A stretch of 64,000 nucleotides of DNA from Misgurnus anguillicaudatus (Eukaryota > Chordata > Actinopteri > Cypriniformes > Cobitidae), in contig NC_073346.2 of the NCBI RefSeq assembly GCF_027580225.2, positions 2,995,001 through 3,059,000 on the forward strand, given 5' to 3'. A program made the translations under genes and the position numbers. Below, piece by piece: positions 8,140-40,888 of the stretch. Below the pieces are notes generated by a model. That model had not been told where the DNA came from, made no database searches, and was given only the letters and a program-made list of their open reading frames with translations. Each line of letters opens with the position of its first letter. Within the stretch, counting starts at the first letter, position 1.

Positions 8140-11664
<3,525 letters not shown>

Positions 11665-11691
11665 GTTCGCTGATATTTACGTGTAACCTTA

Positions 11692-11771
11692 AAACTGTCC
11701 GTGTGACAGAAGAAGCGCACTGTCTGTAAAAGAAAGGTTCCGCTTTACTTTTCATCCGTAGCACATTGAAG
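11692..11771. repeat. rrp15 5' flank, left copy of a ~104-bp direct repeat (first part)
   Basis: This segment starts about 28 bp upstream of the rrp15 ATG and includes ACTGTCCGTGTGACAGAAGA. It recurs at 40784-40866 with only a few differences. The left copy continues at 12261-12284 beyond the inserted hAT element. It probably contains the rrp15 transcription start or core promoter. No TATA box is visible. Confidence 0.85.
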
Positions 11772-12252
11772 CATAGATATGTATATAAAGGCTAGATGGC
11801 TCAAGGCGGAGTCCCTAACGGCATCACCTGGCGGCCATCTTACGACAGGGCGCTCGCTCACTCGTAGCATTGAGTTTAATGGTGCAGGTACTTTTAAATG
11901 ACCATAACTTGCTCAATTTTCTACCGATTTTCAAACGGTTTGGGTTTTTACAAACGTTATTAACGTGGCTATAATTCTGGATGCTTTAACATGTTTCATG
12001 AATTTATTTTTTATTTTTAGTATAGGTATGCAGTGTCATAGGTACATCTTTGACGTTTATAACAAACCAAACCGTTTGAAAATCGGTAAAAAATTAAGCA
12101 AGTTATGGTCATTTAAAAGTACCTGCATCATTAAAACTCAATGCTACGAGTGAGCGAGCGCCCTGTCGTAAGATGGCAGCCAAAATGCGGACGTTGCACT
12201 CAATTGGCCAGCAGCGCGGACGAGCCATCTAGCCTTTATATACATATCTATG
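11772..12252. mobile_element. 481-bp foldback hAT-like MITE
   Basis: Perfect 31-bp terminal inverted repeats (CATAGATATGTATATAAAGG inward) and long imperfect inner arms make almost the whole element a hairpin. It is flanked by the 8-bp direct repeat CATTGAAG (11764-11771 and 12253-12260). An uninterrupted version of the site exists at about 40858-40865, confirming both the boundaries and the duplication. The 8-bp duplication is typical of hAT. No transposase. It sits about 108 bp upstream of the rrp15 start codon. Confidence 0.93.
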
Positions 12253-12260
12253 CATTGAAG

Positions 12261-12284
12261 CGCGTGAATTGGGTTTCTATGTTT
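12261..12284. repeat. rrp15 5' flank, left copy (second part)
   Basis: GTGAATTGGGTTTCTATGTT matches the end of the right copy at about 40866-40888 (GTGATTTGGCTTTCTATGTT). It directly abuts the A-rich 3' end of the LINE. Confidence 0.75.
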
Positions 12285-13865
12285 ATTTTTTATTCTAATT
12301 TCTTTACAAAAACAATTTACAAAATCTCTCGCCGGAGACGTAAGTGTAAAACAAAGTTGAACACAGTTATAATACAGAATAAAATAAACAGAAATAAAAT
12401 AATGTAAAATAAGCATTAAGGCATTTAGGCATTTCAGTCCATAAGGCATGTCAAAGTTATTCACATAAGTATACTGTTCTCAGTTTACAATTTTCCTTAA
12501 ATTAAAGTTACATGGAAGCTTATTAAATTATGACGACAAAAAAATTGAGACATCTTCACATAGAGAGTACATCTTATCACTGGAATTTATCAGAAGTTTC
12601 AAAGAAGCAAAGTATTCCCTCAATTCAATTTTAAACACCATTAGGGATGGATTTTTGTTTTGCCATTTACAATTGTGAATATGGTATTTACCCATAATTG
12701 TTATAATATTATAAATTCTAAAAAATTCTTTGGTAAGATTTTCATTACCAAAAAGAATTTGCTTTAACTGTAATTGTGTAATTCTCTCCATTTTTGTTTC
12801 CAACCAGTTCATGACATCTTGCCAGAAATGTTTTATCACTAAACAAGAGAAAAACAAATGTTCAATAGTTTCGTCTTCCTGGGAACAGAACACACGTGGC
12901 TCCACTTCAAAACCAAATCTCTTTTTAAGCATTTCTGCTGCTGGGTAATATCCATTTATAATTTTAAATTGCATTTCTTTAATTTTAGGAGGTAGAGGCC
13001 ATTTCATGAATTTGATGTTTTTGACATTTTGTCATCATAATACCTTATTTTTAAATTTTGATCAAAATAGTTTACCTTTGAATATTTTGCTAATATAATT
13101 ATTGTTACATTTTTTAATATTTAAGAGAATTTGATTTAATTGCAATTTAGGATTTTTGACTTTTTGAAAAATGTAGATAGTTTTGTATCATATTTAATAG
13201 AGCTATTGGTATTGCTTTACATACCTTATTATAGTCTCTTTTTGAACTTTGTATATTAAATTTCATTCCAAAATCCGTAAACCTAAGAATGTTACCTTGT
13301 TCATCTAATATATCTGTGATAAAAATGATTCCCTTTTCAAACCAATTTCTGAGAAAAAGTGTTTTCCTATTTACTGTTATCACTCTATTATTCCACAAGG
13401 TGGAGCCATGTGGTGTAAAATTATGAGTAAATACCATCTTCCAATAATGAAGAACTTGTTTATGAAACTCAGACAATTTAACAGGCAATTTGGAAACCTC
13501 GAAATCACACTTTAAAAGAGATTCTAAACCTCCCACTTTATCAAAGATACTTTTGGGAATATGACAGAATCAGGTTTATCTACAAAAGCTTTTCATCCAG
13601 TTAACTCTAAAAACTCCAACCAAAGATTCAAAGTCAATTGTTTTCAACCCCCTCTTTACTATAATCCTTTGCAAGTTGTGATTTTTTGATGTAATGAGTT
13701 TTATTACGCCAGATGAATTGATAAATTATAGTATTTGCTTTTCTTATATTATGTGAACTAATATAAAGAGAATAGCATGGGTAAATTAATTTAGAGATCC
13801 CTTCTGATTTTGACAACAGGTTACGTCCTAAAATAGTTAAATCTTTTGTTAACCACATGGATTAA
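12285..13865 (-). mobile_element. L1/Tx1-like LINE, 3' piece (piece 4)
   Basis: Minus-strand 3' portion of a LINE ORF2 with frameshifts. The translation runs WLTKDLTILGRNLLSKSEGI (13858 downward), through a middle block at 13536-13147, to the C-terminal block (13007-12528) with CSQEDETIEHLFFSC, the Cys/His knuckle typical of L1-clade ORF2. The 3' end is A-rich (AATAAAAAATAAAC on the minus strand) and abuts the rrp15 flank repeat. It continues upstream into the piece at 16612-17220. Confidence 0.88.
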
Positions 13866-13893
13866 AGTTTTCCATCGCTAAACGGATTTCCGT

Positions 13894-14730
13894 CAATAGG
13901 GCTTGGGCGCCGCGTTGCATTCTGGGACGTCGCGGCCATGTTGGTGGCCTCGCGAATGTAAACATACAGCAAGTTGAACGAGGAGAAGCGGCGGAGTTGG
14001 GAGAATAAAAACAAAGAAAAAAGATGTTAAAATCCGGAAAAGGATGTGGAATTTACTGGGATACGTTAAACAGGGAAGCAGGGACCGGTATGTGGACAAA
14101 ATCGGAACTATTAACGGTTAGGATCCATACGAAAAAAGAGTTAATAAAGAGCCTTTTAAGATAACAGCGTGGTTGTTGTGAGAGCACGATTTCACGCCAA
14201 TCTGTAAGCAAAGTCACGTATGACCTAGCTTCACAAGTAGCTTAGTTAATGCAGCAGTTTTTGTTGTCAGCAGAGGGATAGCAACAGAAAGATGAATGTT
14301 GAAATTTTCCCGTATTTTGGGCGAGTAAACCGGGACAGTTCCCTTATGTTCAATGTTGACTTAAGCTATATAAATTAATATTCAGATGTTATACTTCACT
14401 GCCGTATATATAAATGTCATTTATATGTCATGTATACACATTACTGAGGGGTTGAGGTTAATGTTTGGTTTCCGATATTGAATAAAACATAATGAAGTTT
14501 TCTGTAATCTGTCATTTTTAATGTAAATTACTTTTAATGTGTTACTTTATTATTAATACAGCAACGGTTTACCATGGTTGAAAAAATAACGACAAATTTA
14601 TTAAATTAAGACACACAATTGAGAGAAAGTATGTCTATAAACAGAGCGCAGCATGGAGCGCAGCAGTAAAGGAGGCAACCAACATGGCCGCCACGACAAG
14701 TAATGACGTCACGACGCCCAAGCCCTATTG
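13894..14730. mobile_element. 837-bp inverted-repeat element
   Basis: Termini CAATAGGGCTTGGGCG and CGCCCAAGCCCTATTG are exact inverse complements. The homology continues inward as GCGGCCATGTTGGT on the left and its inverse near 14680. CpG-rich arms, AT-rich middle, no transposase. No target-site duplication was found, so the superfamily is left open. Confidence 0.8.
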
Positions 14731-14747
14731 CCAAATAAAGACGACGT

Positions 14748-15411
14748 AGCTGTGTCTGAAACCGCTCCCTATCCACTATATAGTGCACTATATCGGGTGT
14801 CGGCCATTTTGTAGTGGTGTCCGAAACCTGAGTGAACAACTTCATTCCCTACATTCATTCACTACTTTTTACCCACAATGCACTCTGATTTTGAGGGTAC
14901 ATTCGATGTACACTCGTTCACTCATATGTCCCATGATGCAACGGGAGACGAACGCGTAACTTGAATCAGCTGAAGGATACTGACAGTAAACACCAAACAT
15001 TTTCTTGTTGTCAGTTATTCCTACGTTTTGAAAATAAACAAATGAAAAATAATTGCGTTATCTTTTATTTAAAATCTAATACACATTTTTATTAAACAAT
15101 AAACAAACAGCAGTAAATAAATATTATAAGCAGTTGTTTTGTTCTCTTTATTATCAACTAATACAATAAACATGACAAATGTGAAAAACAGTAAGAAAGT
15201 AAACTTTACCATTTCACAGCACAATCAATAAAGCCACACAGGTGTTTTTGATGAATCTCTGCGACAGCTCTCTGACGCATGATATTTGCGTCAGTGTCCG
15301 AAATCGCTCACTCATTTTCATTTGCTTCATCCCCATATAGTGGACTCAACTGTCATTCCCCATATAGGGAATAGTGAATGAGTGAACGAGGGAACGGTTT
15401 CAGACACAGCT
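14748..15411. mobile_element. 664-bp inverted-repeat element, 5-bp duplication
   Basis: Terminal inverted repeats AGCTGTGTCTGAAACCG / CGGTTTCAGACACAGCT flanked by direct repeats GACGT (14743-14747 and 15412-15416). Inner arms share CACTATAT/ATATAGTG motifs. Non-coding. Confidence 0.85.
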
Positions 15412-16155
15412 GACGTGTATTAATTGGGATGTGATCAAAGCCTGGAGTGGAGCCAAATCACGTTCCTCTCTCCAATGTTAGCGTTCTGTAATCACTACGC
15501 ACCAGATCCACTCCGGGTTTTCTGACTGTATCACGTTAAGCTGAGGTAAAACTTTTTTTCAGCTAGCATGGACAAACTGATAATGCAGGAAGGCTCCGAT
15601 GTTTTGGAGATCGATAAAGGTGTAAAAGATTGGCAAGCCTTTCACTTCGTGGGCTAAGAAAACCAAACAGCCAGGTAAAATTACGTGTCTTTGCACAGTA
15701 TGACTAGTGGACCTGTATTTTGGGGGTAAATGATTTCTCCCGTACGTGATCACCCGCGTCCCGTTTTTGACTGCTATGCTGATCTAACCAGTTGCTGATA
15801 CAACGGGTTTGTAAAACTCGTAGGTAAACTTCATGTGGCGCCACAAGAAGAGGCAGATGACATTCAAATCCTGTGAGAGCGATTCGAGGTGTAAAAGAGG
15901 AGACTGTTTCCGAAATGCTCTCGCGGCACCTTGATGTCATCCCCCTGTCGGTTCTTACAGTTGCATTTGCGTGTGGTCACAAAAGCATTTGAACATATAT
16001 TTAAGCACCGCAGTTTAAAAACAAGTGATTTTAAGCCATTCAAACACAAACAACAGTGCTAAAAGCTTGTGAGTATTTTTGCCACTTTATCTGCCTTAAA
16101 TACAAATATGCGTCAAAAATCCCATCTTTGCAAGTATCCTCATATAAACGCTCGA

Positions 16156-16432
16156 ACTGATTTTGCCAAGTGGTTGATGTCCTCCGGGCACATATTGTGT
16201 TGACCCAAGGACAACATTTTTCTAAATAAAACCTAAACCTACCCCAAACCCCAACCCTAACCATAACCAAACCCTAAAATCAGAGGGACATGATAAGTGA
16301 AAAACAATGGTCTAGAAACAGCTAATCCTGGTTGTAAGCTTAAACTTAAAACAAACTATAATCTTATTTCAGAAATCTGATTGGTTGATTGAAATGTTGT
16401 CCCAGGGTCAACATAATGAGGACATCAACCAC
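16156..16432. mobile_element. MITE with CCAAGTGGTTGATGTCCTC termini
   Basis: GCCAAGTGGTTGATGTCCTC near 16164 and its inverse complement near 16419-16438 define inverted ends. A second motif pair (GTTGACCCAAGG / CCAGGGTCAAC) lies just inside. The middle is low complexity (CCTAAACCTACCCC). Non-coding. Confidence 0.75.
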
Positions 16433-16611
16433 TTGGTAAAATCAGGAGAGGCTACCTATATATGCCACAGGAGACTTCAATATGGAATTAATGGCAAAAA
16501 AATCTCCCCTTAAAATGCTATTGTTCTCGCATACATAAAGTGTTAAAGGAATATAACTTGACCTAAAAAACATTTCAGTCAGAAGATTTTTTTTCACTTT
16601 AATTCATGTGA

Positions 16612-17220
16612 TTTAAATACCTTTTTATTTCTTCAAATTTCCCAATGATATTTTGGATTCTCTTATTGCCAATTTTTTAGATAAATGAATGCCCAAGTAT
16701 TTTACATCATTCTTAACTGGAATCATCTCCAAGTTTGTTTCAATACAATTATACAAAGGTAATATTTCAATTTTTTTTAAATTAAGGCAAAGGCCTGAAG
16801 CCCTGGAAAAAGCAGAAATCACATTTAAAGCCTTCTGTAGAATTGATCTGTCCTTTAGAAATATCACTGTATCGTCAGCAAATTGGCTTATTTTCAATTC
16901 GGTGTCACCAATTTTTATCCCTTCAAGGTCTTTATTATTTACTACAAAATATGCCAAAAGCTGCATTCAAATAATGAATAATTTTGGTGAAATTGGGCAT
17001 CCTTGCCTTATTCCACAAGAGGCATTTATTCTAGGAGTGATATCTGATTGTAATGAAATATAACTATATATTTGGTCATAAAACATTCTGATTACCTTAC
17101 AAAAATTATTACCAAACCCAAAAAGTTGGAGCGATTTCAGTAAAAAATCGTGTTCTAAGGAATCAAATGCCTTGAAAAAAACCAATAAACAATATTAGGC
17201 TTTCTGTGTTCATAAGGCTC
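16612..17220 (-). mobile_element. L1/Tx1-like LINE, RT core (piece 3)
   Basis: Minus-strand translation includes FKAFDSLEHDFLLKSLQLFG, then GIRQGCPISPKLF and QFADDTVIFLKDR. These are the palm motifs of a LINE reverse transcriptase, with the catalytic pair in FADD. Frame breaks (a poly-T slip near 17180) show it is dead. The upstream half of the domain is at 30514-30736, on the far side of the 13.3-kb insertion. Confidence 0.93.
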
Positions 17221-17374
17221 TGCCCAGATAGCACACGTACGTCGCGGAGATGTCTGCGCGATGTCTTGTTTTTCGTCTGGAAGACGTATTATTTAGGGCG
17301 TTTGCTCATCTGGAAGGCGTCGCCGAGACGTCCGACCCAGCTGTTTGCAAGACACCCAGCAGATCTTTACAAGA

Positions 17375-17645
17375 TGTATGTGATTTAGAACGATGGCGAG
17401 CCGCCGTTTCCCAGATCTTTACAAGATGTTAGAACGGCAAGCCGCTCTTTCACAGATCTTTAGAAGAGCTTTAAAAGATGCGGAGCCGCTCTTTCACAGA
17501 TCTTAAGAAGAGCTTTAAAAGATGCGGAGCCGCTCTTTCCCAGATCTTAAGAAGAGCTTTAAAAGATGCCGAGCCGCTCTTTCCCAGATCTTTAGAAGAG
17601 CTTAGAAAGACGGTAAGCCGCTCTTTCCCAGATGTTTGTAAGATT
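17375..17645. repeat. 44-bp subterminal tandem repeat
   Basis: Five to six copies of a 44-bp unit containing GAGCCGCTCTTTCCCAGATC and GAAGAGCTTTAAAAGATG, with early units more diverged. It lies just inside the left terminus of the 13.3-kb element. Comparable but non-tandem AGATCT/AGAAGATG motifs lie inside the right terminus (30340-30470). Open frames here reflect the repeat period. Confidence 0.85.
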
Positions 17646-18126
17646 ACAAGATCCCTCATTAACAAATTGAATTGCCCTAAACTACAGCAAATTATTTCTA
17701 CACACATCTACACATGCAAGCTGTGTCATCGATATTAAGTAATTAAAACAGCATTTTCAATTGATCTTAAAACAGGCAGTTGTTGATTTTATAAAACACA
17801 TTTATTCAAATTAAACAATGAAAACTTTCATTCATTTATCTTTAAATATATTTTTTACATGACAGTATGCGAAAACAACAACATATAAACATATTTAACA
17901 TAATCAAAACCTTTCCGCGTCTGCTTTATTAATCTCCATTCTAAAATAAAACATTTCAAAAACTTACCAGGAAATAATCGTGATAGGATGCTCTTTCTTT
18001 ATAGCTTTAATTAGGATCTAGAAGATAAAATTACCCGAAAGTGTTATCATTGTTAAATAAAATACGGATGTGCGTCTTTACGTCAAGGTCGTGATTCTAC
18101 ATAACAACATCCGCTTGACCTCGCAA

Positions 18127-19480
18127 TGCCAAGAAGAAGAAAGGCGTGGAACACATGCTTAAGGTATGTAGTAATAATGCATTTAAATAATAAACTGTTT
18201 GGTGTGGGATCATTTAAATAATACCTTGAAATTGGGTTGATAACAGTTATTCATGCTTTAATATTGATTTTTCGCCCACCTGTCTGACGTTAATTTATTT
18301 TGATCGTTCATGTAACTGAGTCTTGTGTAAGATTCTAGAAAGATATAGTGGCTTACTTTTTTTTAAAACGATCAGTATTATGGTTGATATTTGTATTGCA
18401 CTTGTTAAAAAAAATTTTGCCCCCATTTTTCATTTCATGAGCTGAACTTAAATATTTTCTATGTCCCCAAAAGGCCTATTTCTCTCAAATATTATTCACA
18501 AATCTGTCTAAATCTGCGTTAGTGTTGCGTTTATAATTGTGGTTAGTGTATGTGTAAGGCACTGCCTGTGAAAACCCAGCTAAAGTCTTTTTTGTGATGT
18601 ATTGTTTTCTACATAAAATCATCCTAAACAATGAAAAGAACATTTTGTAAAAATATCTTATCTTTAATATTGGCTGCGTAAGATTCTTTGTATAAACCCT
18701 CAGTCTGTTAATTTTGTCTCCAGCCTGTCAAGATCTTCAGATGATGTTTGAGAAAAAAGTCATCATCCTCTTCGTCACTCTTCATCCGTATTTGGGGTAA
18801 CAAACACCTGCTTCCCACAAGAGACTGGACCGCTGAAGTCAGGTGGTCAGTCTTTATTTGCATTCATCCTAGAACCGTCAAGACTGCCTTTTTGCAGCTG
18901 CAATAGCAAAGATAAATGAATTAGGAGTGTAGCTTTTAAAATGCTTTTACTATTAAATGCATTATTTTGATTTATTTAAACTTAAGAATCAAATAGGTGT
19001 GTAGTTTAGGTAAAATTCTTATAACTGCATTTGTCTGTTTTACAACAGATGTAACTAAGTATAAATTTACTGTTTTTTTTTATGTTGGATGGATCATCAG
19101 ACCTGCACCTTCCTTGAACATGTTGGTAAGGTAACACTTCATCTGAGTAAATGATGATGCTTTTTTATAAGAACTTTTTATAAATAAATATTATTATTGT
19201 TTTTTTTAGGTAACTTACTCTGTATTTGTTCACGGTGGTCACCCCAGGGTCTCAGGACTCAAAACGAGTGCTCTATGGATTGAACAGAAAATGTAGTATT
19301 AACAAGTGTTAAGTTATGTCTTTAAATGCCACTAATAATGTGTTTCTGTTTTCTTTCTCATTATGCTAACAAACGCTCTTTTATCCCTCATGTTAGGTGG
19401 ATCAACACTCCAACCATCTGCATTAGGGACTGAATAAAGGATGCCCTCTGTAGCTGGGAATGTTAGATCAGGTAATTTGC
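18127..19480 (+). other. exon-like segments in the 13.3-kb element
   Basis: An ATG at 18127 opens MPRRRKAWNTCLR and runs into a GTATGT donor at 18166. Candidate later segments begin after CTCCAG near 18723 and again near 19210, where the sequence contains GGTGGTCACCCCAGGGTCTC. Related blocks recur at about 21520-21610 and 22580-22780. No protein family was recognised, and no continuous frame could be assembled with confidence. This may be an old transposon gene or a captured transcript. Confidence 0.3.
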
Positions 19481-19924
19481 ATTTGATATATTTTTAAAGA
19501 CACACACTAATGCTGCTTGTACACCGCCAGCGACTAGCAACACAATCTCATTCATTCCAATGGAAGCTTTGCCCCATTCAGCAACATGAGCAACTGTGAT
19601 CATCGACAACAGGAAGTGGGCATGTCCAGCTATGCCACAACGTTGAGGAAAGTTCAACTTGATGAAGGACTTTTGGGAGCAACTACCAATGAGAGTGAAG
19701 CAGTGAAGTTCGTGTCATCACTCTTTTGTCATTTACTGAGAGGATTGGTACTCATTTGTTTGTAGTTTTTACTAGGACAACCAGAATTGGGAACGCCTTC
19801 TGATGAACTCATTAAAAGAAATGGCTGACACACAGTGACTAGGTTGTTGGCGGTGTAAATGCAGCATAAGGCCTTAAACTGTCTGTGGCAAATATTTTTA
19901 GCACCCAAAATAAATAGGGGTGCT

Positions 19925-20513
19925 GCTTTTAAAGGAAAACACCACAGTTTTTCAATATTTTACTATGTTCTTACCTCAACTTAGATAAATTAATACATCC
20001 CCATCTTTTATCAATGCATGCACTTAATATTTGTACAGCGCGTCGTGAATGTGCTAGCATTTAGCCTAGCCCCATTCATTCCTCAGAGCGCAGTAACACC
20101 ATCACTCCTGACTACTCCCCCTCTTTTGAGTTTGAGCGAGAGGTGGAGTAATCAGGAGTGATGATGTTACTGTGCGCCGAGGTCGAAGTGCTGCAAAGTG
20201 CTCTTTCGCCATACAATATAGTTCTTATTTTTATCCGCTTAAAAAATCAGCACGATTTATTTTGTGCCACCATACTTACTCATGTAAGTACTCATGTAAT
20301 AGTCTTTAAATAGGGAAAACATGAAAGGGTTGGGTGGCTTCTAAATTCATCCCTGTTTGGATCCTAAGGAATGAATGGGGCTAGGCTAAATGCTAACACA
20401 TTCACAACACGCTTTACAAAGATTAAGTGCACGCATTGAAAAAAGATGGGTATGTATTAATTCGTCTAAGGTAAAACATAGTAACATTTTGGAAAGCGGT
20501 GGTGTTTTCCATT
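19925..20513. mobile_element. foldback MITE within the 13.3-kb element
   Basis: Left arm with AAAGGAAAACACCAC and TAGCATTTAGCCTAGCCCCA; right arm with the inverse (GGGGCTAGGCTAAATGCTAA, then GTGGTGTTTTCC). Almost the whole 590 bp can fold back. Non-coding. Confidence 0.85.
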
Positions 20514-21290
20514 TAAAGGGATAGTTCACTCAAAAATGAAAATAATGTAATTAATGACTCACCCTCATGTTGTTCCAAACTTGTAAGACCTCCGTTCATC
20601 TTCGGAACACAGTGTAAGATGTTTTAGATTTAGTCCGAGAGCTTTCTGACCCTCCAAAAAATGTATGTGCTGTATACTGTCTAATTTCCAGAAAGTTTAT
20701 TAAAACATCATCAAAGTAGTTCATGTGACATCAGTGGGTCAGTTAGAATTTGTTGAAGCATCATTAATACATTTTGGTCCAAAAATAACTATTTATTCAG
20801 CATTGTCTTCTCTTCCGGGTCTGTTGCGAATGCGCGTGCACAATGGCGCTGCTGACGTGTTATCCTCAGAAATGTTTGCGAAGATTTTGTTTGCGAAGAT
20901 TGTTTGCGAAGATTTTCTTTACAGCGTCTCCGTCAGACTGTAAACGAAAAAAAAAGCTTGGGTGCACCAGATAACACGCCAGCAGCGTCGTACGGCAGCA
21001 GTGTCATGCACACGGTTCACAACAGACCCGAAAGAGAAGACAATGCCGAATTAAGTCATTATTTTTGGACCTAAATGTATTTTTGATGCTTCAACAAATT
21101 CTAACTGACCCACTGATGTCACATGAACTACTTTGATGATGTTTTTATTACCTAACTGGACATGAACAGTATATCGTACATACATTTTTAATGGAGGGTC
21201 AGCAAACTCTCGGACCACATCCAAAACATCCCAAACAGCGCTTCCGAAGATGAACGAAGGACTTTAGGGTATTATTTAAATCAACTAAAA
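20514..21290. mobile_element. foldback MITE, GGGATAGTTCAC family
   Basis: Begins TTTAAAGGGATAGTTCACTC, the same terminus type as the rrp15 intron 3 element. Inverted blocks pair across it: AACTGACCCACTGATGTCAC with GTGACATCAGTGGGTCAGTT, and a GATGAACG motif near both ends. The far end is diverged, so the right boundary is approximate. Confidence 0.7.
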
Positions 21291-22830: not shown

Positions 22831-22865
22831 CCTTAGGTTTTAGCATCCAAATTAACTAGGGGTGC

Positions 22866-30736: not shown

Positions 30737-30768
30737 GTTCCCTTTCAATACGGTTCACTTCGCATTGC

Positions 30769-30924
30769 GTCAGTTAGCTGACGCTATGGGGGAAACTCCT
30801 GTTTACTCCGTGACTGAAGCCTATTGGTTAACGTCTGTACAAAGTACAGACCAATGACTTTGAACCCGCGCGCGGGAAGTACACGTCCTTATATAAGCGC
30901 GGTTCAAGCGTCAGGAGCTCATTA
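30769..30924 (+). repeat. DIRS left inverted terminal repeat with promoter
   Basis: Matches the inverse complement of 38852-39008 almost exactly. It includes GTACAAAGTACAGACCAATG and a TATA-type CTTATATAAGCGCGG near 30891, a probable Pol II promoter. Followed by a leader with a duplicated block of about 60 bp (near 31000-31110). Confidence 0.93.
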
Positions 30925-31959
30925 ATTTCTCCTTCAGCGCGAACCTCTCGCTGCTCCGAAGAAGAAGAAGCCTTACCTCGCCGTCGACAAAAGCCCTGCA
31001 GCGGAGTCCAGGCCTAGCGTCTTCCCTGCCCTTTCCGGCTGAGAACCGAAGACAGCAGAATCCAGGTCTAGCGTCTTCCCCTGCCGCTTTCCGGCCGAGA
31101 ACCGAAGATAGCCTTCGCTTGCCGTGGTACGAGCCCTGTGCAGCGGACCCATGCCTGACGAGGTCTCCCCTGCGGCCGCCCGGTAAGATCAATATTTTTA
31201 ATATAAAGCTGTAAGCTAAAAGAGCAGGCGCTGTTGTAATAGCGTCCAGCACAGCGGCTTGAGTGAGCCTCCCTGCTATGAATTTCCCCGAGCGCGTCAC
31301 CGGTCTGGCACCTCCCACGCCGGGACCGCGCTTATATGCTTCGGTTGTCTTATCTAGGCCTGGCAAACTCGACTCCTTTTAAGGATCCGGGTTATTGTGA
31401 GTCACTCACTAAAATGATCCGGGTTGTGTGAGTCACTTGAATCACTTGAGTCAGTATTGCTAAATCACCAAGGAAACTCAGTACAGACCCACTTGTAACC
31501 GGCTGATCCACGCGACTCGAGATTCTCCGAGCCGGAAACATTGCAGACTCGCAGACCATGGGACTCGCTCTACAGATCCACTAACCGGCTGATTTGCGTG
31601 GATCAGCCGGAGCCGGTTAGTGGATCTATAGAGCGACTGAAGTCTCCTCAAAAGCAAATCCACAACAAAAGCCTTTCACTTCTGAGATAACATGCTTATA
31701 GGTTTTAGGTTTGGTGTGTATGGTCGACCATTTAAAAAAATTGGCCAAATAATAATAGCATAATAATATAAAAAAAAACTGTGTCCTGCTTATACAGCCC
31801 CCAGAGGCGGAGAGACAAATCGCGCTGATCAGCCGGTTACGGATCAGCCGGTTACGAGTAGGCCTGGCAAACTCGACTCCTTTTAAGGATCCGGGTTATT
31901 GTGAGTCACTCACTAAAGTGATCCGGGTTGTGTGAGTCACTTGAATCACTTGAGTCACT

Positions 31960-32354
31960 AGCCGTTTCTCAATGTCAAGGAAGGATCCTCGGAAGCCAGA
32001 ATTTCGAGGATGCTACGTCATCGACGTCCGTCGAAGGACTGTTCCAATGTCGAGGATCCTCGAAATTTCAGCCAAGGACTGAGTCCTTCATTCGAGAAAT
32101 ATCCCATATACAGGAAAGGATGCGTATGTGTATCCTTCGCGCTCTTCACATGCTGAAATCACCCACAATCCTATGCGCGCAGCACCGAAAGCACACCTTT
32201 CAATCACGCAATGACGTAATGACGTGCACTTGCTAGCCTGTTCCATTTAACGTGTTCTCCGAATGCTTAAAAGGAGCCTCGCCTAACCTCTGAAGGAAGT
32301 GACTTGTAAGGACTAGTCCTGCCAAGGAAGTATCCTTGACATTGAGAAACGGCT
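31960..32354. mobile_element. 395-bp TIR element C inside B
   Basis: AGCCGTTTCTCAATGTCAAG and its inverse form the termini, flanked by ACT on both sides (31957-31959, 32355-32357). The equivalent uninterrupted site in element A (near 31456) reads GAGTCAGTATTGC, supporting a 3-bp duplication. The inner arms fold back. The superfamily is uncertain; a 3-bp duplication is seen in PIF/Harbinger and CACTA types. Confidence 0.88.
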
Positions 32355-32763
32355 ACTATTGCTAAATCGCCAAGGAAACTCAGTACAGACCCACTTGTAA
32401 CCGGCTGATCCACGCGACTCGAGATTCTCAGAGCCGGAAACATTGCAGACTCGCAGACCATGGGACTCGCTCTACAGATCCACACTAACCGGCTGATTCG
32501 CGTGGATCAGCCGGAGCCGGTTAGTGGATCTATAGAGCGACTGAAGTCTCCTCAAAAGCAAATCCACAACAAAAACCTTTCAATTCTGAGATAACATGCT
32601 TATAGGTTTTAGGTTTGGTGTGTGTATGGTCGACCATTTAAAAAAAATAGGCCTAATAATAGCATAATAATATAGAAAAAACTGTGTCCTGCTTATGCAT
32701 CCCCCAGAGGCGGAGAAACAGTTCGCGCTGATCAGCCGGTTACGGATCAGCCGGTTACGAGTT

Positions 32764-33066
32764 AAAAAAGGTTCTCGAGTCAGAGCAGATCTCTTGAGTT
32801 TGCAATGTTTCCGGCTCTGAGTGAGAATCTCGGGTCAATTCGCGGCTCGCGCGGATCCGTGGGTCTCTTGAGTTTGCAATGTTTCCGGCTCTGAGTGAGA
32901 ATCTCGGGTCAATTCGCGGCTCGCGCGGATCCGTGGGTCTCTTGAGTTTGCAATGTTTCCGGCTCTGAGTGAGAATCTCGGGTCAATTCGCGGCTCGCGC
33001 GGATCCGTGGGTCTCTTGAGTTTGCAATGTTTCCGGCTCTCTCGGGTCAGTTCTCGCGCAGATCAG
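32764..33066. repeat. 74-bp minisatellite, array 1
   Basis: About four copies of a 74-bp unit with GAGTTTGCAATGTTTCCGGC and GGATCCGTGGGTCTC. The phase is exact, with markers at 32859, 32933 and 33007. Inside element B. Confidence 0.95.
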
Positions 33067-33283
33067 CCGGTTACGAGTGGATCCGTAGTGCGAGCGAAGT
33101 CTCATCAATAATGTTGAAGGAGGTTTGTGTGTGTGGTGGCGCTGTTTATGGTTTTACATTGAATTGTAGTAGGACTCAACTGATCCGGGTAAATGACACT
33201 AGAGACTCGCGACTCATGAGTTAATTTAAAGATCCGGGTTAAAGATCCGAGTGAGTCGCGACTCAAACAGGTCTAGTTACGAG

Positions 33284-33786
33284 TTGAAAGATTCTCGAGT
33301 CAGAGCAGATCCGCGGGTCTCTTGAGTTTGCAATGTTTCCGGCTCTGAGTGAGAATCTCGGGTCAGTTCGCGGCTCGCACGGATCCGCAGGTCTCTCGAG
33401 TTTGCAATGTTTCCGGCTCTGAGTGAGAATCTCGGGTCAATTCGCGGCTCGCGCGGATCCGCGGGTCTCTCGAGTTTGCAATGTTTCCGGCTCTGAGTGA
33501 GAATCTCGGGTCAGTTCGCGGCTCGCACGGATCCGCAGGTCTCTCGAGTTTGCAATGTTTCCGGCTCTGAGTGAGAATCTCGGGTCAATTCGCGGCTCGC
33601 GCGGATCCGCGGGTCTCTCGAGTTTGCAATGTTTCCGGCTCTGAGTGAGAAACACGGGTCAGTTCGCGGCTCGCACGGATCCGCAAGTCTCTCGAGTTTG
33701 CAATGATTCCGGCTCTGAGTGAGAATCACGGGACAATTCTCGGCTCGCGCCGATCCGCAGGTCTCTCGAGTTTGCAGTGTTTCCGG
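33284..33786. repeat. 74-bp minisatellite, array 2 with alternating units
   Basis: Six to seven copies of the same 74-bp unit (GGATCC markers at 33381, 33455, 33529, 33603, 33677). Units mostly alternate between CAGTTCGCGGCTCGCACGG and CAATTCGCGGCTCGCGCGG, giving a 148-bp higher-order period. The array is in element A and is interrupted by element D. Minus-strand open frames here are products of the period. Confidence 0.95.
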
Positions 33787-34276
33787 TGTTGTGTCGAAGT
33801 CTGTTCCCCCTGTGTTCCCCCTATTTTTACCTTCAGTGTAGTGTTTTTATGGCGATTTATCACGTTATAGGTTTTATTACTTATATATTTAAAGTTTTAA
33901 TGGCTACTGAGATGTATATGTGTGCATTTCTGTAATGTATCTCTATTGTTCTTAATGGTAAGTCAATTATTTTTACAGTATGAATCATATTATATGTATA
34001 ATATTTATTTAATTATGTATGCAAACATTACATTTTTAAAACAACCAGTAAAGGGAAAAAAAAGAAAAATACAGGTTATATTTTAAAAGAAATACCCTAA
34101 TAGAAAACTGTCAAATGTATGAAATTTTTAATAAATTGTATTATAAAATACATGATATTATGCCTTTTTAGTATAACCAATTCAAATCTTTAATCTTTCT
34201 AAATGTAACGTGATGAAAACGCTATAAAAGCACTACACTAAAGGGAAACATAGGGGGAACTGAGTTCGACACAACA
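33787..34276. mobile_element. 490-bp TIR element D inside A
   Basis: Inverted termini TGTTGTGTCGAA / TTCGACACAACA plus inner pairing (CAGTGTAGTG with CACTACACT). Flanked by CCGG (33783-33786, 34277-34280). Uninterrupted neighbours read TTTCCGGCTCTGAG, so CCGG fits a 4-bp duplication. The interior is AT-rich, unlike its CpG-rich host. Confidence 0.87.
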
Positions 34277-34537
34277 CCGGCTCTGAGTGAGAATCTCGGG
34301 TCAGTTCTCGCGCAGATCAGCCGGTTACGAGTGGATCTGTAGTGCGAGCGAAGTCTCATCAATTATGTTGAAAGAGGTTTGTGTGTGTGCTGGCGGTGTT
34401 TATGGTTTTTCATTGAATTGTAGTAGGACTCAACTGATCCGGGTAAATGACACTAGAGACTCGCGACTCATGAGTTAATTTAAAGATCCGGGTTAAAGAT
34501 CCGAGTGAGTCGCGACTCAAACAGGTCTAGTCTTATC

Positions 34538-36520
34538 CATGTTTCGTGCTCCCCCTGCTGTTCCTCTCTCCCCGGGATGAACACACGGCGAGCCATGAGA
34601 CTAGATGGATGCATAGACCTGCACACACGGACTAACCCCCCCTGTGTTCTGTCACATCGCAACCGTTCATGCTTACAGAGTCCCTTCGCTCCTCTCACAT
34701 TCAGTGGCGAGATCTCTGACACATATGAATCCCCCGAGTGCATCGGGTGATACCGTTTATATGACGCACGGCTGTTCTGTCTGTGTTGCTGCTCCCCTCT
34801 GTCGTTCCTCTCTTGTTGAGATGAACAAGCGGGGGAACCGTAAAACTACAAAGATGCATACGACAAGCAAACACGGGCGGATCTGCCCCTGTTTCCTGTC
34901 ATAGCACAGCCACTCGTGCTCCACGCTCGCGGAGTCCCTCGCTCCTTTCCCCGCAGTGGTGAGATCTCTTAACGGCGTAGTTAGCACGCAGTCTTACGGC
35001 TCGCTGCCTCTAAATGCAGCTGTCTAGTGTTCAACGATTACAGAGCTTCATGCCCCTCCCCTCCTGGAGCGGCGCGATCTCATTCGTCTGCTCGATAGGG
35101 CGGATTCGCCGCTATTGGAGCATCAAGAACACTCATTATAAGAGCTAACCGGCTCACTATTCGTCTATACAGAGCTTCATGCCCCTCCCCCCTGGAGCGG
35201 CGCGATCTCATTCGTCTGCTCGATAAGGCGGACACGCCTCTATCTGAGCGCTAAAACACTTATTATAGAGCTTAACCGGCCTGAGTCTATCTCACTTCGG
35301 AAAGCTCACTACTAGTCTGCCCGGTCATTTCTCTCTGGTTTAGACGGAATCAGAGGCAGAACGAATTTGTTTAACATACTAAGGCCCGAATACCTCCCTT
35401 TATTCAGTCCCGTCCTATATCAGTGCGCTGAATATTGGTACATTCTTATATAGCCTACCCGGTTTTTCTGCCCTTTTTAATAAACGGCAAAACCGCGGGC
35501 CTCACGGCAGACTTCCTCTCTGCGATGGGTTCAGTCTGACATTAAACCACCTAGACATACTGCTCTGCTCCGTGAGCCGTTCGGGTCACCGTCACTACTG
35601 AGGCTCGTGCAGCTGAACGGTCGAGCTCTGGTCTTCGCAGCACAGCTGCGTCGACATAGAACTGTCTGAAGAGGGGTTAAGTCGCGCCTCGGCTGGACTG
35701 CCCTGAAATGTTTTCTGTGTGCTGTTTATCCAAAACATACTGTGTAATACTGTTGGTTATGCGACCTCACTATAGTGGCGAACGGTATTGAATTCCTCTA
35801 AAAAGAGTAATTTCCGTGCTTACTATACTGTGTATTGACACCCCACGGTTGTACGGTGTCTCTAAACACTTTCTCGCCTTACTGACAAGCAATCAGTAAT
35901 ACGCACACACGGCCCGTTGTCCATAATTCTATCGACGCTTGCCGAAAAAACCCCGGTTTGGCCATATACTGTATATTGACACCCCACGGCTGTACGGTGT
36001 CTCTAACACTTTTCTGCCAAATTCGCTCGCAGCCCACCTCAGTTTCTCCGCTACGATGCTGACGGCGCAAACGAGCACGGTCTTACGGCTGTCATTCTCT
36101 CTTCCTAGAGAGACGCAGCCTCAGACCTCTCCATGGCTCCAAGCATTTGAATCGCGCCGTCTACGGACGGCTACTCAAAGGCTTACAGCCAAGCGGTTTA
36201 TGACGTTTTTCGGCCATACAGCTGATTTATATCAGCGGATCCGAAGACGCTCACACCTCCGCTCTGCTCCAATACTCGGAGATATTAAGGGTAATATCAA
36301 CCTGAAGTGAGCTTGCTACCCGCCACAATAAGTTTCAAAGCGCGCGCACAGTCAGACGCGCGGCATCTCGTTTAAGACGGGCTCACGTACCCCTCTAACG
36401 AGCCTCAGTAAACTGAATATCGTGGCATTCTGTTCATAAGTCCACTTCAGTTTGACTAAGCTAAGGTCCCGCCCCGAGCTGACGGCCGGGAAGCTCATGC
36501 TTAAGTTACACACAGCTGCA
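34538..36520 (+). pseudogene. DIRS interior, gag-side region with paired duplications
   Basis: No intact frame. Successive blocks are each present twice in tandem: about 34540-34740 and 34750-34980; 35037-35160 and 35161-35285 (both with AGAGCTTCATGCCCCTCCCC); about 35826-35880 and 35966-36020 (both with TTGACACCCCACGG). In a DIRS element this part would hold the gag-like frame and the start of pol, but no motif is legible. Confidence 0.5.
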
Positions 36521-36524
36521 TGAA

Positions 36525-36800
36525 GTGCTACCATTACGAGATCGCCAGCATCTGCTGTGGGTTGAACACGCTTTACGACGGCAATCAGCCTTCGGCGCGT
36601 GGAACGCCCGTTTGTCTCATATCAATCACCTTGTACTGTACATACGGTCCATTAAGGGGATGATTTTAGCACTGCAGCACTCTCGACCATGTTATTGTGA
36701 TAATGCGGTCGGGCAAACTACGGTGGTTTCATTATTTACCGAACCAGACTGAGATCTCGCCCCCTGTACAAGCTGGCGAGTCATCTCCTTTATAAACTCA
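36525..36800 (+). pseudogene. DIRS RNase H remnant
   Basis: In shifting plus-strand frames the translation shows SHINHLVLYIRSIKGMILAL, then DNAVGQTTVVSLF. A second frame gives LRSRPLYKLASHLL. This is the order and spacing of the DIRS RNase H region, where a catalytic-type D before N and a conserved RSRPLYKLA-like segment are usual. Stops and frameshifts make it a pseudogene. Confidence 0.7.
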
Positions 36801-37255
36801 TTGCATCGCTTTATAAGCTATGTTCAATCAGAGTGATACGCATCTCGTGCTTAACTACCAAGATGCAGACATATTAACCCGTTACGATGGGCGTGCAGAG
36901 ATTGCATCCGTGGGACACGACCTACATTACGTGCCTTATAACACGTTGACACGAGCTGCTAGGACCCCTTTCGCGAGGCGTCCTTATGCAAAGTCTGATC
37001 TATTCTGTCTAGTGACAGCGAGAGTCTTCCCCCCGCGAATTGTAGGTGGAACAGCTTTATCCTCACTACAGAGGCTCGTGAACGGCGGCTTTCTCCCCCT
37101 GCGTATATATATTTGTGGCGGTGATAACAGCGAACCACGCTTTTATGACCGACCATCCACTTTATTCATAAGTCTGTCATTTCTCAGATGCGGACGGTGC
37201 CCGAGGCGCAGCGCTCTGGAACTGTCCAAGGTCCTGTATGACAGATACGTCTGAC

Positions 37256-37500
37256 GTACATCAGACGATCAGCTGTTCATCGGCGTCACAGATCACTCAC
37301 TAGCGCACCTGTCAATACAGGTTATTTATGGATCGTTGACGTTATCACCTCCCGTGACAATGAAGTCTACTCCATGTATGGAGTAGATCCTTGGGCATGG
37401 TCTTAGAAGTTTCTCATTTGACATTTGTGACACGGCCGGCTGGTCCCCGCCGTCCACGTTGTCACTTTACAGCTTCGACATCCCTGCTTCGCGCACTAGT
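37256..37500 (+). pseudogene. DIRS tyrosine recombinase C-terminus, copy 1
   Basis: Plus-strand fragments read DQLFIGVTDHS, then WIVDVI and, after a frame change, DICDTAGWSPPSTLSLYSFD. This is the conserved end of the DIRS recombinase, near its catalytic Tyr. A second copy lies about 0.86 kb further on. Confidence 0.7.
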
Positions 37501-38100
37501 GAGGTTTGTTGCATTAAAGGTGCGCCGCGTAAGCTCACCTGTATGCACGATATGGGGTTTAATTATATGCGTCCACCGTGCGCTTAGAGAAGCTCACATA
37601 TGCACGCTACAACATTTCGGTATACACTAAAGATGCGCTCGGAAAAGCTCATCTGTATACACGGCTGTGACACATACATACATTGTTGTTCATCTGTGTA
37701 CGTTCACGGTGCGTTGAGTGCCCACCGTACGTTCATCAATCATATCTGTACACATTCACGGCGCGTTCTGTGCATTGATTTATCTATACGCATTCACGGT
37801 GCACTGAAGGGTTCACCCGTGTGCGCACAACTTATTATCAGAACACATGACGGCGCGCTTGAGAATCTTGCCGGCCTGTGCATTATAACACTCTGATTCA
37901 TCTATATGCATTCACGATGTATTCAAGTGTTCACCTGTGCCCGTGCAATTTATAGTCAATACACATTTACGGCGCGCTTGGACAGCTCACCGATCTGTGC
38001 ACTATAATACTACCTATATGCATCCCGATGCGCTCGAGGGCGCACCTGGCTTCACACTATTATGGTATCTGTATAATCCCACGCTACGAACCGTTCTGCC
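37500..38100. repeat. degenerate repeat around TTCACGGCGCGCT
   Basis: About eight loosely spaced repeats with a core like CATTCACGGTGCGCT followed by AGCTCACCTGTG, at variable 50-100-bp spacing. It continues the coding tail of copy 1 and is echoed at 38400-38550, so it probably arose by slippage of the recombinase 3' end or its 3' flank. Confidence 0.65.
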
Positions 38101-38114
38101 GCATATCATAGTCA

Positions 38115-38400
38115 GATCTTCGCAGATCACTCACTATGTATGTCTGTTGCTTACAGTGGTTATTTAGATGGATCGTTGAAACCATCGCACTGGCTCACGC
38201 CCCTCTATGAGCTATGTCCTATATAGAGCCCACTCTGTGAGAGTTTGGCTTTTTCATGGACTTGGTCTACAGGGGTATCTATTTGATATCTGCTACACGG
38301 CCGGCTGGTCTTCGCCGTCTACGTTGTCAGATTGTACAGCTTAGACGTCCCTGCCCTACGAGCGCAGGTTCTCTCGGCTCAATCATGCACGCTCATGCGT
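38115..38400 (+). pseudogene. DIRS tyrosine recombinase C-terminus, copy 2
   Basis: Repeats the order of copy 1: GATCACTCACTA, then RWIVETIALAH near 38167, DICYTAGWSSPSTL near 38288, and in another frame LYSLDVPALRAQVLSAQ at about 38329-38379. Stops interrupt every frame. This copy keeps the LYSLDV segment better than copy 1. Confidence 0.75.
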
Positions 38401-38674
38401 TTTATGTGTACACCACGGTGCGCTCAGCGAGCTCACCAACGTGACTCTGAATTTACTTATCTCGCACACCCGCGGCGCGCTCGGTATCTCGCCGTCTTGT
38501 GCTATGTTATGTGCCCCCGGTGCGTTTAAAACCCCACCGTGTGCGCGTCAACATTTTATATGGTGCTTACACATTGCTTAAAGCTGTGAATATGCCGGGT
38601 ATAGGGCCACACGCAGTGTCTCTCCGGTAAGGCACTTCTGTACGTTGTGTATGCACGGCGTGATGGGATTACGT

Positions 38675-38770
38675 TCCCCCATAGCGTCAGCTAACTGACG
38701 CAATGCGAAGTGAACCGTATTGAAAGGGAACGCTTAGGTTACTCACGTAACCCCGGTTCCCTGAAATAAC
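38675..38770. repeat. DIRS internal complementary region
   Basis: The first part is the inverse complement of the left terminus (30737 onward, beyond the inverted repeat). From AAC at 38729 it is the inverse complement of the right terminus (39010-39052). It thus carries both outer ends joined through a single AAC/GTT, which is how DIRS elements store the terminal sequence used to complete the circular replication intermediate. Confidence 0.92.
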
Positions 38771-38851
38771 GGGAACGAAGCATTGCGTCACTTGCCGTGC
38801 TACAAACGTCTACGCAGCGAGTGTATTCGGCTGCGCGCTTCAGTCGAATAA

Positions 38852-39008
38852 TAATGAGCTCCTGACGCTTGAACCGCGCTTATATAAGGACGTGTACTTC
38901 CCGCGCGCGGGTTCAAACGTCATTGGTCTGTACTTTGTACAGACGTTAACCAATAGGCTTCAGTCACGGAGTAAACAGGAGTTTCCCCCATAGCGTCAGC
39001 TAACTGAC
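38852..39008. repeat. DIRS right inverted terminal repeat
   Basis: Inverse complement of the left terminal repeat with very few differences. Followed by the right-end extension CTGTTATTTCAGGGAACCGG up to 39052. Confidence 0.92.
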
Positions 39009-39052
39009 CTGTTATTTCAGGGAACCGGGGTTACGTGAGTAACCTAAGCGTT

Positions 39053-40115
39053 TTTATCGTTGGGGATAACTGACCACTTTTTATGCAGTCGAGATACGCA
39101 TTAAATAATAAATGTTTAATATCAGTCCAAAAGGTCTTAAAAAATTCTATAGATAGAGCATCGATGCCCGTTGATTTACCGTTTCTCATCTGTTTCAAAG
39201 CTGTTTCAATTTCTGTTAAAGTTATATCTTTTTCTAGTAACAATTTATCCTCATCTGTTAGTTTAGTTACACTTTCGTTAACATTTTTCATAAAGGCATC
39301 ACAATCGTTGCTTTGGAATTTTTTCTTCTATAAATTACAATAAAATTGACATACTTCTTCTGTTATTTTTTCTTTGTCTTGAATGATATTTCCATTAATA
39401 TTTAATGTTGTTATAAATTTTTTAGTCCGTCTCCGTTTTTCAAGGCTATAAAATATGCTGAATCCCCCCCCCCCCCCCGCTCAATTCATTTGGCATCTTA
39501 CAAAGGCGCCTTTTGCTTTCTCCATGTATATAACATCCAGTTGGTTTTGTAGTGTGTGTAACTCTTGTGTCTCATCTACAGTTATGTTAGGTTTTCCACA
39601 TAATAAACTTATATTATCAACTATTTCCTTTTGTTTACGTTTACAAAATTTAAACCACTCCCATTTACTTACATCTGACAAATCCATTTCATAAATTTAT
39701 AGACATAATATTCTAATTTGGCTACAGGATTCATCATTTAGCAACAAGGTATTGTTAAATTTCCAAATATTGTTTGATTTATTTTTTTGTTTGATGATGA
39801 ATGACAAACCAATAAGACAATGGTCCATGAGAGGAGATGAATGAATATCACATTTTGGTGTAAGAATAGTAATATTTGGTGACACAAGCCAATAATCTAA
39901 TCTTGAGCATAAGTTAATATCTGCTGGGCTAATCCATGTAAATTGCTTTGTGTTAGGGTGTGTCACTCTCCAATAATCTACCAAGTTATTGGATAAACAA
40001 AAATTGTTTAACATGTCATCATAATCTGGTTGTAATCCTTTAGGAGGTTTTCTGTCAAGCCAGGAATTAGGTACTATATTAAAATCACCTCCTACCTTAA
40101 ATAATAGGGTAGGAG
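39053..40115 (-). mobile_element. L1/Tx1-like LINE, endonuclease end to linker (piece 1)
   Basis: Minus-strand translation from about 40090 gives VGGDFNIVPNSWLDRKPP, then FTWISPADINLCSRLDYWLV and MDHCLIGLSF. These are the C-terminal half of the APE-type endonuclease (GDFN, SRLDYW and the DH pair). The linker follows (ITLTEIETALKQMRNGKSTG, IEFFKTFWTDIKHLLF). The N-terminal half of the endonuclease and all of ORF1 are missing, so the copy was 5' truncated. A C homopolymer of about 17 bp at 39463-39479 lies inside. Confidence 0.93.
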
Positions 40116-40783
40116 GGGGGGGGGGTTCACCTGCATCCGAAAGGTATATTTTTTAACCTAGTTTTTTGTAATCCCTAAAGTGTAATCCCTTATGCAAAGA
40201 TGAAGAGAAAATGGGGTGGATTGTGTCTGTAGGATGTATTGGTCAGATTTTATGTAGATTTAAAGTTTTAATTTTTCACAACCTAATACCAAGCACGGCC
40301 ACAAAAATGGTACAAAAAAAAATCACATATGGGACAATAATTTGTGTGGGGAACATCAAAATTCCTTTTCTAGACACCTTAAGGATTAACTAGGTTAAAA
40401 AAAATATACCTTTCGGGTGCAGGTGAACCCCCTGTTGGATTGGAAATTAAACTGACTTAAGGACTGTCAGATAGGTACACTTTATCCTGGTGAACCGATT
40501 AGAGTCCAAGAATTGAGTCAAGCACCATTCAGATATTGATTAAACTTTACTGGAGAAAGGAGGGTTTGTATATGTGTGGTTTTCTTTGATGTACGCACAC
40601 ACTTGAACTTGAAACGGCTCGTAGCGCTTCCTCACAGCTCCCTTCACATTCACCTGAGTCTCTTCACGACGGGCATGGGCTTAAAGGGGACACGCACGGG
40701 CTTATAGAGGACACGCACGGGCTTAAAGGGGCCGCGCACGCAAGCCGTTTATACACCCCCCCCCCCCCCTTCCTACCAGACTA
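40116..40783. mobile_element. G/C-homopolymer-ended insert with inner MITE
   Basis: Bounded by GGTAGGA plus a G run (about 40108-40124) and a C run plus TTCCTACC (40758-40782), which are mutual inverses. Inside at about 40124-40434 is a MITE with long inverted ends (GGTTCACCTGCATCCGAAAG). After it comes a threefold 25-26-bp repeat with GACACGCACGGGCTT (about 40676-40740). Between 40435 and 40670 nothing is recognised. This is the 5' edge of the LINE block. Confidence 0.6.
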
Positions 40784-40888
40784 AAAACTGTCCGTCTGAC
40801 AGAAGAAGCGCACTGTCTGTAAAAGAAAGGTTCTGCCTTACTTTTCGTCCGTAGCACATTGAAGCACGTGATTTGGCTTTCTATGTTT
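40784..40888. repeat. rrp15 5' flank, right copy of the ~104-bp direct repeat
   Basis: Near-identical to 11692-11771 joined to 12261-12284. It includes the uninterrupted version of the hAT insertion site and a CACGTG near 40866. Its right side continues into sequence absent at the left copy. It reads as the second half of a long target-site duplication, or as a small segmental duplication, bracketing the LINE block. Confidence 0.85.

What the first reader, a model, noticed from the sequence alone, without database searches (positions are those of the whole stretch)
11692..40888. About 104 bp of rrp15 5' flank brackets a 28.5-kb LINE-based nest
The same roughly 104-bp sequence occurs at 11692-11771 plus 12261-12284 and again at 40784-40888. 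The LINE's A-rich 3' end abuts the left copy and its truncated 5' side lies toward the right copy, so this reads as an unusually long target-site duplication from one LINE insertion, later inflated from about 3-4 kb to 28.5 kb. The rrp15 proximal promoter would then have been duplicated and the rest of its upstream region moved away.
Basis: partly seen in the sequence, partly recalled or inferred. Interest (0 to 1): 0.8.

Follow-up and report, generated by a model that had tools for sequence, protein, structure and literature searches.

The report
LINE insertion with 105-bp target duplication
A jumping gene that landed just upstream of the fish gene rrp15 seems to have copied about 105 bases of the landing site instead of the usual few to twenty, and later jumping genes then piled into it; this is an unusual but already known outcome of such insertions.

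Summary
A 105-bp direct repeat with 7 mismatches lies at 11691-11771 + 12261-12284 and at 40784-40888, 28.5 kb apart. The left copy is split by a 489-bp insert with 32/32 inverted ends and an 8-bp duplication, and begins 26 bp upstream of the inferred rrp15 start codon. Between the copies lies one minus-strand L1-superfamily LINE of about 3.5 kb. Its A-rich 3' end touches the left copy; it is truncated within its endonuclease domain towards the right copy. Three inserts break it, and a fourth (an inverted-repeat element holding an LTR-like insert) sits at the 5' junction. The repeat edges resemble LINE cleavage sites: GTTT/C where the tail was primed, TTTT/AA at the other. One LINE insertion with a long target-site duplication (TSD) is the best reading (0.85). 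TSDs above 100 bp are documented for LINEs, so the kind is known. No fish genome could be searched, so the empty site in relatives, the genome copy number of the 105 bp and the TSD habit of this LINE family are untested. That a promoter was duplicated is plausible from position only.

The parts
11616..11664 (-). rrp15 first coding exon (inferred): ATG at 11664, MATRVEKPHVVVVNEN..., followed by GTGAGA
   Evidence: (translation); Rrp15p domain in later exons. The splice site is read by eye.
11691..11771 (.). left copy of the 105-bp repeat, gene-proximal 81 bp
11772..12260 (.). 489-bp insert in the left copy: near-palindromic MITE (hAT-like by its 8-bp duplication ATTGAAGC, one copy included here; register ambiguous by 2 bp), 32/32 terminal inverted bases
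   Evidence: the right copy is the uninterrupted site
12261..12284 (.). left copy of the 105-bp repeat, remaining 24 bp
12285..13866 (-). LINE piece 4: ORF2 C-terminus with zf-RVT, 3' UTR, A-rich 3' end at 12285
   Evidence: (PF13966, E 8e-9); inner limit approximate
13867..16599 (.). insert of about 2.7 kb in the LINE (limits approximate)
   Evidence: inferred by eye from loss and resumption of LINE-like reading frame
16600..17222 (-). LINE piece 3: reverse transcriptase palm (FADD), 16625-16966 matches L1 ORF2p 673-776
   Evidence: (PF00078, E 1.6e-10)
17223..30511 (.). 13.3-kb insert with 35-bp terminal inverted repeats (34/35)
30512..30736 (-). LINE piece 2: reverse transcriptase N-terminal part, matches L1 ORF2p 514-583
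   Evidence: (PF00078, E 1.1e-7)
30737..39052 (.). about 8.3-kb insert with long inverted ends (156 of the first 157 aligned columns identical; 96.0% over 175)
   Evidence: exact limits approximate
39053..40107 (-). LINE piece 1: endonuclease C-terminal part onward; begins at the position of L1 ORF2p residue 142 (5' truncation), with up to 12 unassigned bases 40096-40107
   Evidence: (PF03372, E 3.8e-8)
40108..40777 (.). small inverted-repeat element (ends GGTAGGA...TCCTACC) at the LINE 5' junction; it holds a 323-bp LTR-like insert at 40433-40755 (TG...CA, GGGGG on both sides, one of them within a longer G run)
40784..40888 (.). right copy of the 105-bp repeat, uninterrupted

Best explanation
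One L1-superfamily LINE inserted by target-primed reverse transcription about 130 bp upstream of the rrp15 start codon. The plus strand was nicked at CTATGTTT/C and its 3' T's primed cDNA synthesis on the A-rich tail. The other strand was cut 105 nt away, at CAGTTTT/AA, and cDNA synthesis stopped inside the endonuclease domain. Filling in of the 105-nt stagger left one copy of the target on each side. Later a MITE split the gene-proximal copy, a small inverted-repeat element landed at the 5' junction and itself took an LTR-like insert, and inserts of about 13.3, 8.3 and 2.7 kb broke the LINE, stretching 3.5 kb to 28.5 kb. Shown: repeat, LINE pieces and their order, truncation, inverted ends. 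Inferred: the order of events, the nicks, a single founding event, any effect on rrp15.
For: Repeat of 105 bp with 7 mismatches. LINE pieces lie in one orientation and in order, matching L1 ORF2p residues 142-259, 514-583 and 673-776, then zf-RVT. The A-rich tail GAATAAAAAAT directly adjoins the left copy, followed by three A's that could belong to either. The gene-side edge of the repeat, as kept at the left copy (11691/11690), reads TTTT/AA on the LINE-sense strand; that hexamer occurs 11 times, this one included, in 9000-12284 (3285 bp) on that strand, about 0.3% per position. LINE decay is 10 stops and 4 frame switches in 1073 codons, against 6.1 stops expected for half the repeat's Jukes-Cantor distance of 0.070. 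The 8.3-kb insert's ends differ less (156 of 157 columns) than the repeat copies, as a later insert should. Long TSDs are documented: 1 of 25 ZfL2-2 insertions in wild-type DT40 cells had a TSD above 20 bp, of 1228 bp (PMC2666801, passages); TSDs over 100 bp never exceeded 10% of HeLa L1 events but were 4 of 7, 21 of 23 and 22 of 28 in XPA-, XPC- and XPD-deficient cells (PMC5223499, passages).
Against: The 5' junction is not directly visible: an inverted-repeat element and an LTR-like insert separate LINE and right copy, with 6 unassigned bases on the right-copy side and up to 12 on the LINE side. At the right copy itself the base after TTTT is T, not A. If the 8-nt word TTTAAGGT at the LINE edge is really the end of the duplicated target, the duplication is about 113 bp and TTTT/AA is not its edge. 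The first nick GTTT/C is only a loose match to the L1 consensus (recalled as TTTT/AA). No second copy of this LINE was available to fix its 3' end or its usual TSD length. No empty site from another fish was seen. 105 bp is several times the usual TSD (15 bp for L1 and 5 bp for ZfL2-1 in DT40, PMC4245944, abstract). The stop count (10) lies above the 6.1 expected; no test was run.
Confidence: 0.85

Rival explanations
1. Pseudo-TSD: two tandem or segmental copies of the rrp15 upstream region existed, and recombination between LINE copies lying in or beside them, or a deletion, left a LINE bracketed by the two copies.
For: A model of this kind is stated for long TSDs of HERV-K by the authors of PMC5488345 (passages). 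The 7% divergence leaves time for rearrangement.
Against: The homology stops at both LINE ends: at 12284/12285 exactly, and at 40784 with only the junction element and a few unassigned bases between. Window self-BLAST at E up to 1e-8 finds no longer flanking duplication. Two rearrangement endpoints would both have to fall on LINE ends.
Confidence: 0.08
2. The 105 bp is itself a dispersed repeat, or a short tandem duplication older than the LINE, and the LINE happened to insert between two copies.
For: The window is rich in repeats, and genome copy number of the 105 bp could not be measured.
Against: Only two copies in 64 kb at E up to 1e-3; position directly before the inferred rrp15 coding start; coincidence of both edges with both LINE ends; TTTT/AA at the edge.
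Confidence: 0.04
3. Assembly artefact: two haplotypes or homeologous copies of the locus (one with, one without the LINE) were joined in series, so the promoter piece appears twice.
For: No call supports it directly. False duplications at haplotype switches occur in assemblies (recalled), and 7% divergence could fit homeologs in a polyploid fish.
Against: The duplicate is bounded by the LINE ends, not by arbitrary points; one copy has a clean MITE insertion with its own 8-bp duplication; no other duplicated DNA flanks it.
Confidence: 0.03

Closest known systems
[quoted passage not shown]
   Same: Endonuclease, reverse transcriptase and zf-RVT domains in order; 5' truncation; A-rich 3' end; direct repeats at both ends
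   Different: Repeat of 105 bp instead of the usual few to about 20; interrupted by four inserts plus one inside a repeat copy
Long-TSD (L-TSD) LINE insertions in cell culture (ZfL2-2 in DT40, PMC2666801, passages; human L1 in NER-deficient cells, PMC5223499, passages)
   Same: LINE insertion with a TSD far above 20 bp
   Different: Here a natural, aged insertion in a genome, seen only in one assembly
R9 of bdelloid rotifers (title of Gladyshev and Arkhipova 2009, seen in the reference list of PMC2861651; a length of 126 bp is recalled)
   Same: Exceptionally long TSD on insertion of a non-LTR retrotransposon
   Different: R9 is rDNA-specific (title); here one insertion beside a protein gene, habit of the family unknown
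HERV-K insertions with 111- and 250-bp TSDs (PMC5488345, abstract and passages)
   Same: Long direct repeats around a natural insertion, with the same TSD versus pseudo-TSD question
   Different: LTR retrovirus and integrase, not a LINE

Membership tests
L1-superfamily LINE | Apurinic-type endonuclease domain followed by reverse transcriptase, closest to L1 ORF2p | tested here: met
   All three pieces match LINE-1 ORF2 chains; the top chain, 8c8j, is named only 'RNA-directed DNA polymerase' (LINE-1 ORF2p by recall). Solved structures only, so nearer unsolved clades were not compared.
L1-superfamily LINE | C-terminal zinc-binding zf-RVT region | tested here: met
   PF13966 E 8e-9
L1-superfamily LINE | ORF1 and full 5' end | tested here: not met
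   Not seen, because the element is 5'-truncated at the position of ORF2p residue 142; truncation is itself typical of LINE copies. L1 versus Tx1 clade was not resolved.
TPRT insertion with target-site duplication | Direct repeats directly at both element ends | tested here: met
   3' end directly; 5' end only after setting aside the junction element, and to within about 18 bases
TPRT insertion with target-site duplication | A-rich tail at the 3' junction, priming strand ending in T | tested here: met
   GTTT/ edge against GAATAAAAAAT
TPRT insertion with target-site duplication | Single-copy empty site in a genome without the insertion | not tested
   No fish genome could be reached: 12 genome-search runs unanswered
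LINE with habitually long TSD (R9-like) | Other copies of the same family also have about 100-bp TSDs | not tested
   No other copy of this LINE was available (one LINE piece each, found no relative in viral or prokaryote contigs)

The most novel reading that the evidence does not exclude
This LINE family habitually cuts its two strands about 100 bp apart, as the title of the R9 paper reports for rotifer rDNA, so that its insertions routinely copy promoter-sized DNA; here it would have left a complete core promoter on each side of the insertion, one serving rrp15 and one left facing the old upstream region.
Probability: 0.06. Interest if true: 0.65.

Novelty: new member of a known kind. Interest (0 to 1): 0.3.

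Why it matters
It looks like a natural, old case of a long LINE target-site duplication, a product that the LINE papers seen here describe from cell culture, at a gene's immediate 5' flank. It shows how one insertion can duplicate a piece the size of a core promoter and move the rest of the upstream DNA tens of kilobases away as later elements nest in it.

Tried and rejected
The chance-match idea was rejected (E = 4.8e-33 for the larger piece). A longer segmental duplication was rejected: window self-BLAST at E up to 1e-8 shows the two flanks match only over the repeat. That the LINE's 5' UTR lies at 40435-40780 was considered, since that stretch is next to the right copy; it was rejected because the stretch divides into an LTR-like insert and the end of an inverted-repeat element. 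A 'rescue' reading, in which the long duplication saved the rrp15 promoter, was dropped: the gene-proximal 130 bp would have stayed in place with a short duplication too. Loss of a CACGTG E-box in the left copy (CACGCG there, minus strand) was considered and left open, because the change could equally be CpG decay creating the E-box in the right copy. An 8-nt word TTTAAGGT is shared by the LINE's first 20 bases and the target around the TTTT/AA edge; 210 of 50000 random pairs, and 215 of 50000 with the target fixed, reach 8. A first version of that test used the wrong stretch (longest shared word 5, reached by 3209 of 20000) and is void. The word may be 5' junction microhomology, or the last bases of a slightly longer (about 113 bp) duplication that the junction element split; this was not resolved.

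Searches of viral and prokaryote contigs with one LINE piece each found no relative. Rfam at gathering thresholds found nothing in the window. A paper search for promoter duplication with LINE target-site duplication found 0 papers. Other paper searches gave the papers cited or listings not used; PMC10249811 was looked at (one passage) and did not help. No paper was read whole.
Full report
What is there. The window carries rrp15 on the minus strand (Rrp15p domain, E 6.8e-15 for 9830-10168; a weaker match, E 3.4e-5 and below the family's cut-off, for 10712-11089) with a TGF-beta propeptide exon further left (4051-4479, E 4.4e-12), which fits the rrp15-tgfb2 neighbourhood (recalled). The inferred rrp15 start codon begins at 11664. 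Directly upstream lies the left copy of the repeat: 11691-11771 and 12261-12284, separated by a 489-bp insert. The right copy, 40784-40888, is uninterrupted. The two agree at 98 of 105 positions. The insert in the left copy has 32 of 32 identical terminal inverted bases and leaves the 8-bp word ATTGAAGC on both sides, so it is a hAT-like MITE by structure (no transposase match was sought); the right copy shows the site without it.

What lies between. Reading the minus strand from the right copy to the left: 6 unassigned bases; an inverted-repeat element of about 345 bp, spread over 40108-40777 because a 323-bp TG...CA insert flanked by GGGGG lies near one of its ends; up to 12 unassigned bases; LINE piece 1 (endonuclease from the position of L1 ORF2p residue 142, matching to 259, and on into the linker); an insert of about 8.3 kb with long inverted ends (156 of the first 157 aligned columns; 96.0% over 175); LINE piece 2 (ORF2p 514-583); a 13.3-kb insert with 34/35 inverted ends; LINE piece 3 (ORF2p 673-776); an insert of about 2.7 kb whose limits are approximate; LINE piece 4 with zf-RVT (E 8e-9) and the A-rich 3' end at 12285. 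The LINE pieces sum to about 3.5 kb (3478 by the limits used), close to what an L1-type ORF2 of 1275 residues would need from residue 142 on, plus a short 3' UTR. So this reads as one LINE, 5'-truncated, and the inserts explain the distance of 28.5 kb. Two C-terminal pieces sent to the solved-structure search gave no LINE match, and one of them (13147-13569) also had no LINE domain in Pfam; it is assigned by position and orientation only.

How it arose. The repeat ends exactly where the LINE's A-rich 3' end begins (12284/12285). On the other side it ends at 40784, after which come 6 unassigned bases and the inverted-repeat element, and beyond that the LINE's first bases. On the LINE-sense strand the gene-side edge, as kept at the left copy, reads CAGTTTT/AAGG; TTTTAA occurs 11 times in 3285 bp on that strand there, so an edge falling on it by chance is about 0.3%. 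The other edge reads, on the opposite strand, CTATGTTT/C, where the three T's can pair with the A-rich tail. Loose sites such as GTTT/g, TTTT/c and TTTC/a are listed for L1 in PMC5223499 (table passage). The simplest account is two nicks 105 nt apart on opposite strands, priming at the first, early stop of cDNA synthesis and fill-in of the stagger. Divergence between the copies gives a Jukes-Cantor distance of 0.070. Ten stops and four frame switches in 1073 LINE codons compare with 6.1 stops expected at half that distance, or 12.4 at the whole of it (nonsense fraction 0.055 taken from the 16625-16966 piece), so LINE and repeat are of compatible age. The frame path was chosen to minimise stops and switches, which biases the count down, and some stops may belong to unrecognised insert edges, which biases it up. 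No rate was calibrated, so no date is given.

Against this reading. The 5' junction is hidden by the element that landed there, and an 8-nt word shared by LINE edge and target leaves open whether the duplication is 105 or about 113 bp; in the latter case TTTT/AA is not its edge. No empty site was seen, the genome copy number of the 105 bp is unknown, and no other copy of this LINE was at hand: the own-genome search was asked 12 times and not answered, and the collections that did answer hold viral and prokaryote DNA. A pseudo-TSD from recombination between duplicated regions, as discussed for HERV-K (PMC5488345, passages), remains possible but would need both breakpoints to fall on the LINE's ends.

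What is known. LINE target-site duplications are usually short: 15 bp for human L1 and 5 bp for zebrafish ZfL2-1 in DT40 cells (PMC4245944, abstract). Long ones exist: 1 of 25 ZfL2-2 insertions in wild-type DT40 cells had 1228 bp (PMC2666801, passages); in PMC5223499 (passages) TSDs over 100 bp never exceeded 10% in HeLa but were 4 of 7, 21 of 23 and 22 of 28 in XPA-, XPC- and XPD-deficient cells, and 3 of 9 in complemented XPD cells. PMC2912911 (passages) says that in a HeLa study extremely long TSDs were among the alterations coupled to 5'-truncated L1 insertions, which is the form seen here. Rotifer R9 is titled as making an exceptionally long TSD (reference seen). The present case is therefore a natural member of a known kind.

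The gene. The repeat ends 26 bp before the start codon, so it probably holds the core promoter or 5' UTR, but no transcript data bear on this. The LINE tail now lies about 620 bp upstream of the start codon, and the MITE splits what remains. The three rrp15 exon stretches looked at are open in frame, the rest of the gene was not reconstructed; this suggests that the gene still works with about 107 bp of its old flank.

Noticed in passing
window 51694-56613: Repeats of about 540 bp in two blocks (51694-53386 and 55231-56613), about 76-98% alike, possibly a satellite-like array; the tandem-repeat finder, limited to periods up to 500, did not list it.
   Followed up: no
window 32785-33864: 74-bp minisatellite inside the 8.3-kb insert, with neighbouring direct duplications about 900 and 1250 bp apart.
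   Followed up: no
window 42503-42736: hAT transposase dimerisation domain (PF05699, E 5.3e-14) on the minus strand, beyond the right copy, so the old upstream region is also hit by elements.
   Followed up: partly
window 44006-44795 and 48137-48963: Direct duplication of about 800 bp at 84% identity, nature unknown.
   Followed up: no
window 17398-17637: 44-bp tandem repeat (5.5 copies) just inside the left end of the 13.3-kb insert.
   Followed up: no
window 12254-12284 and 40857-40888: The right copy reads CACGTG where the left copy reads CACGCG (minus strand); whether an E-box was lost on the gene side or gained on the far side cannot be told without an outgroup.
   Followed up: partly
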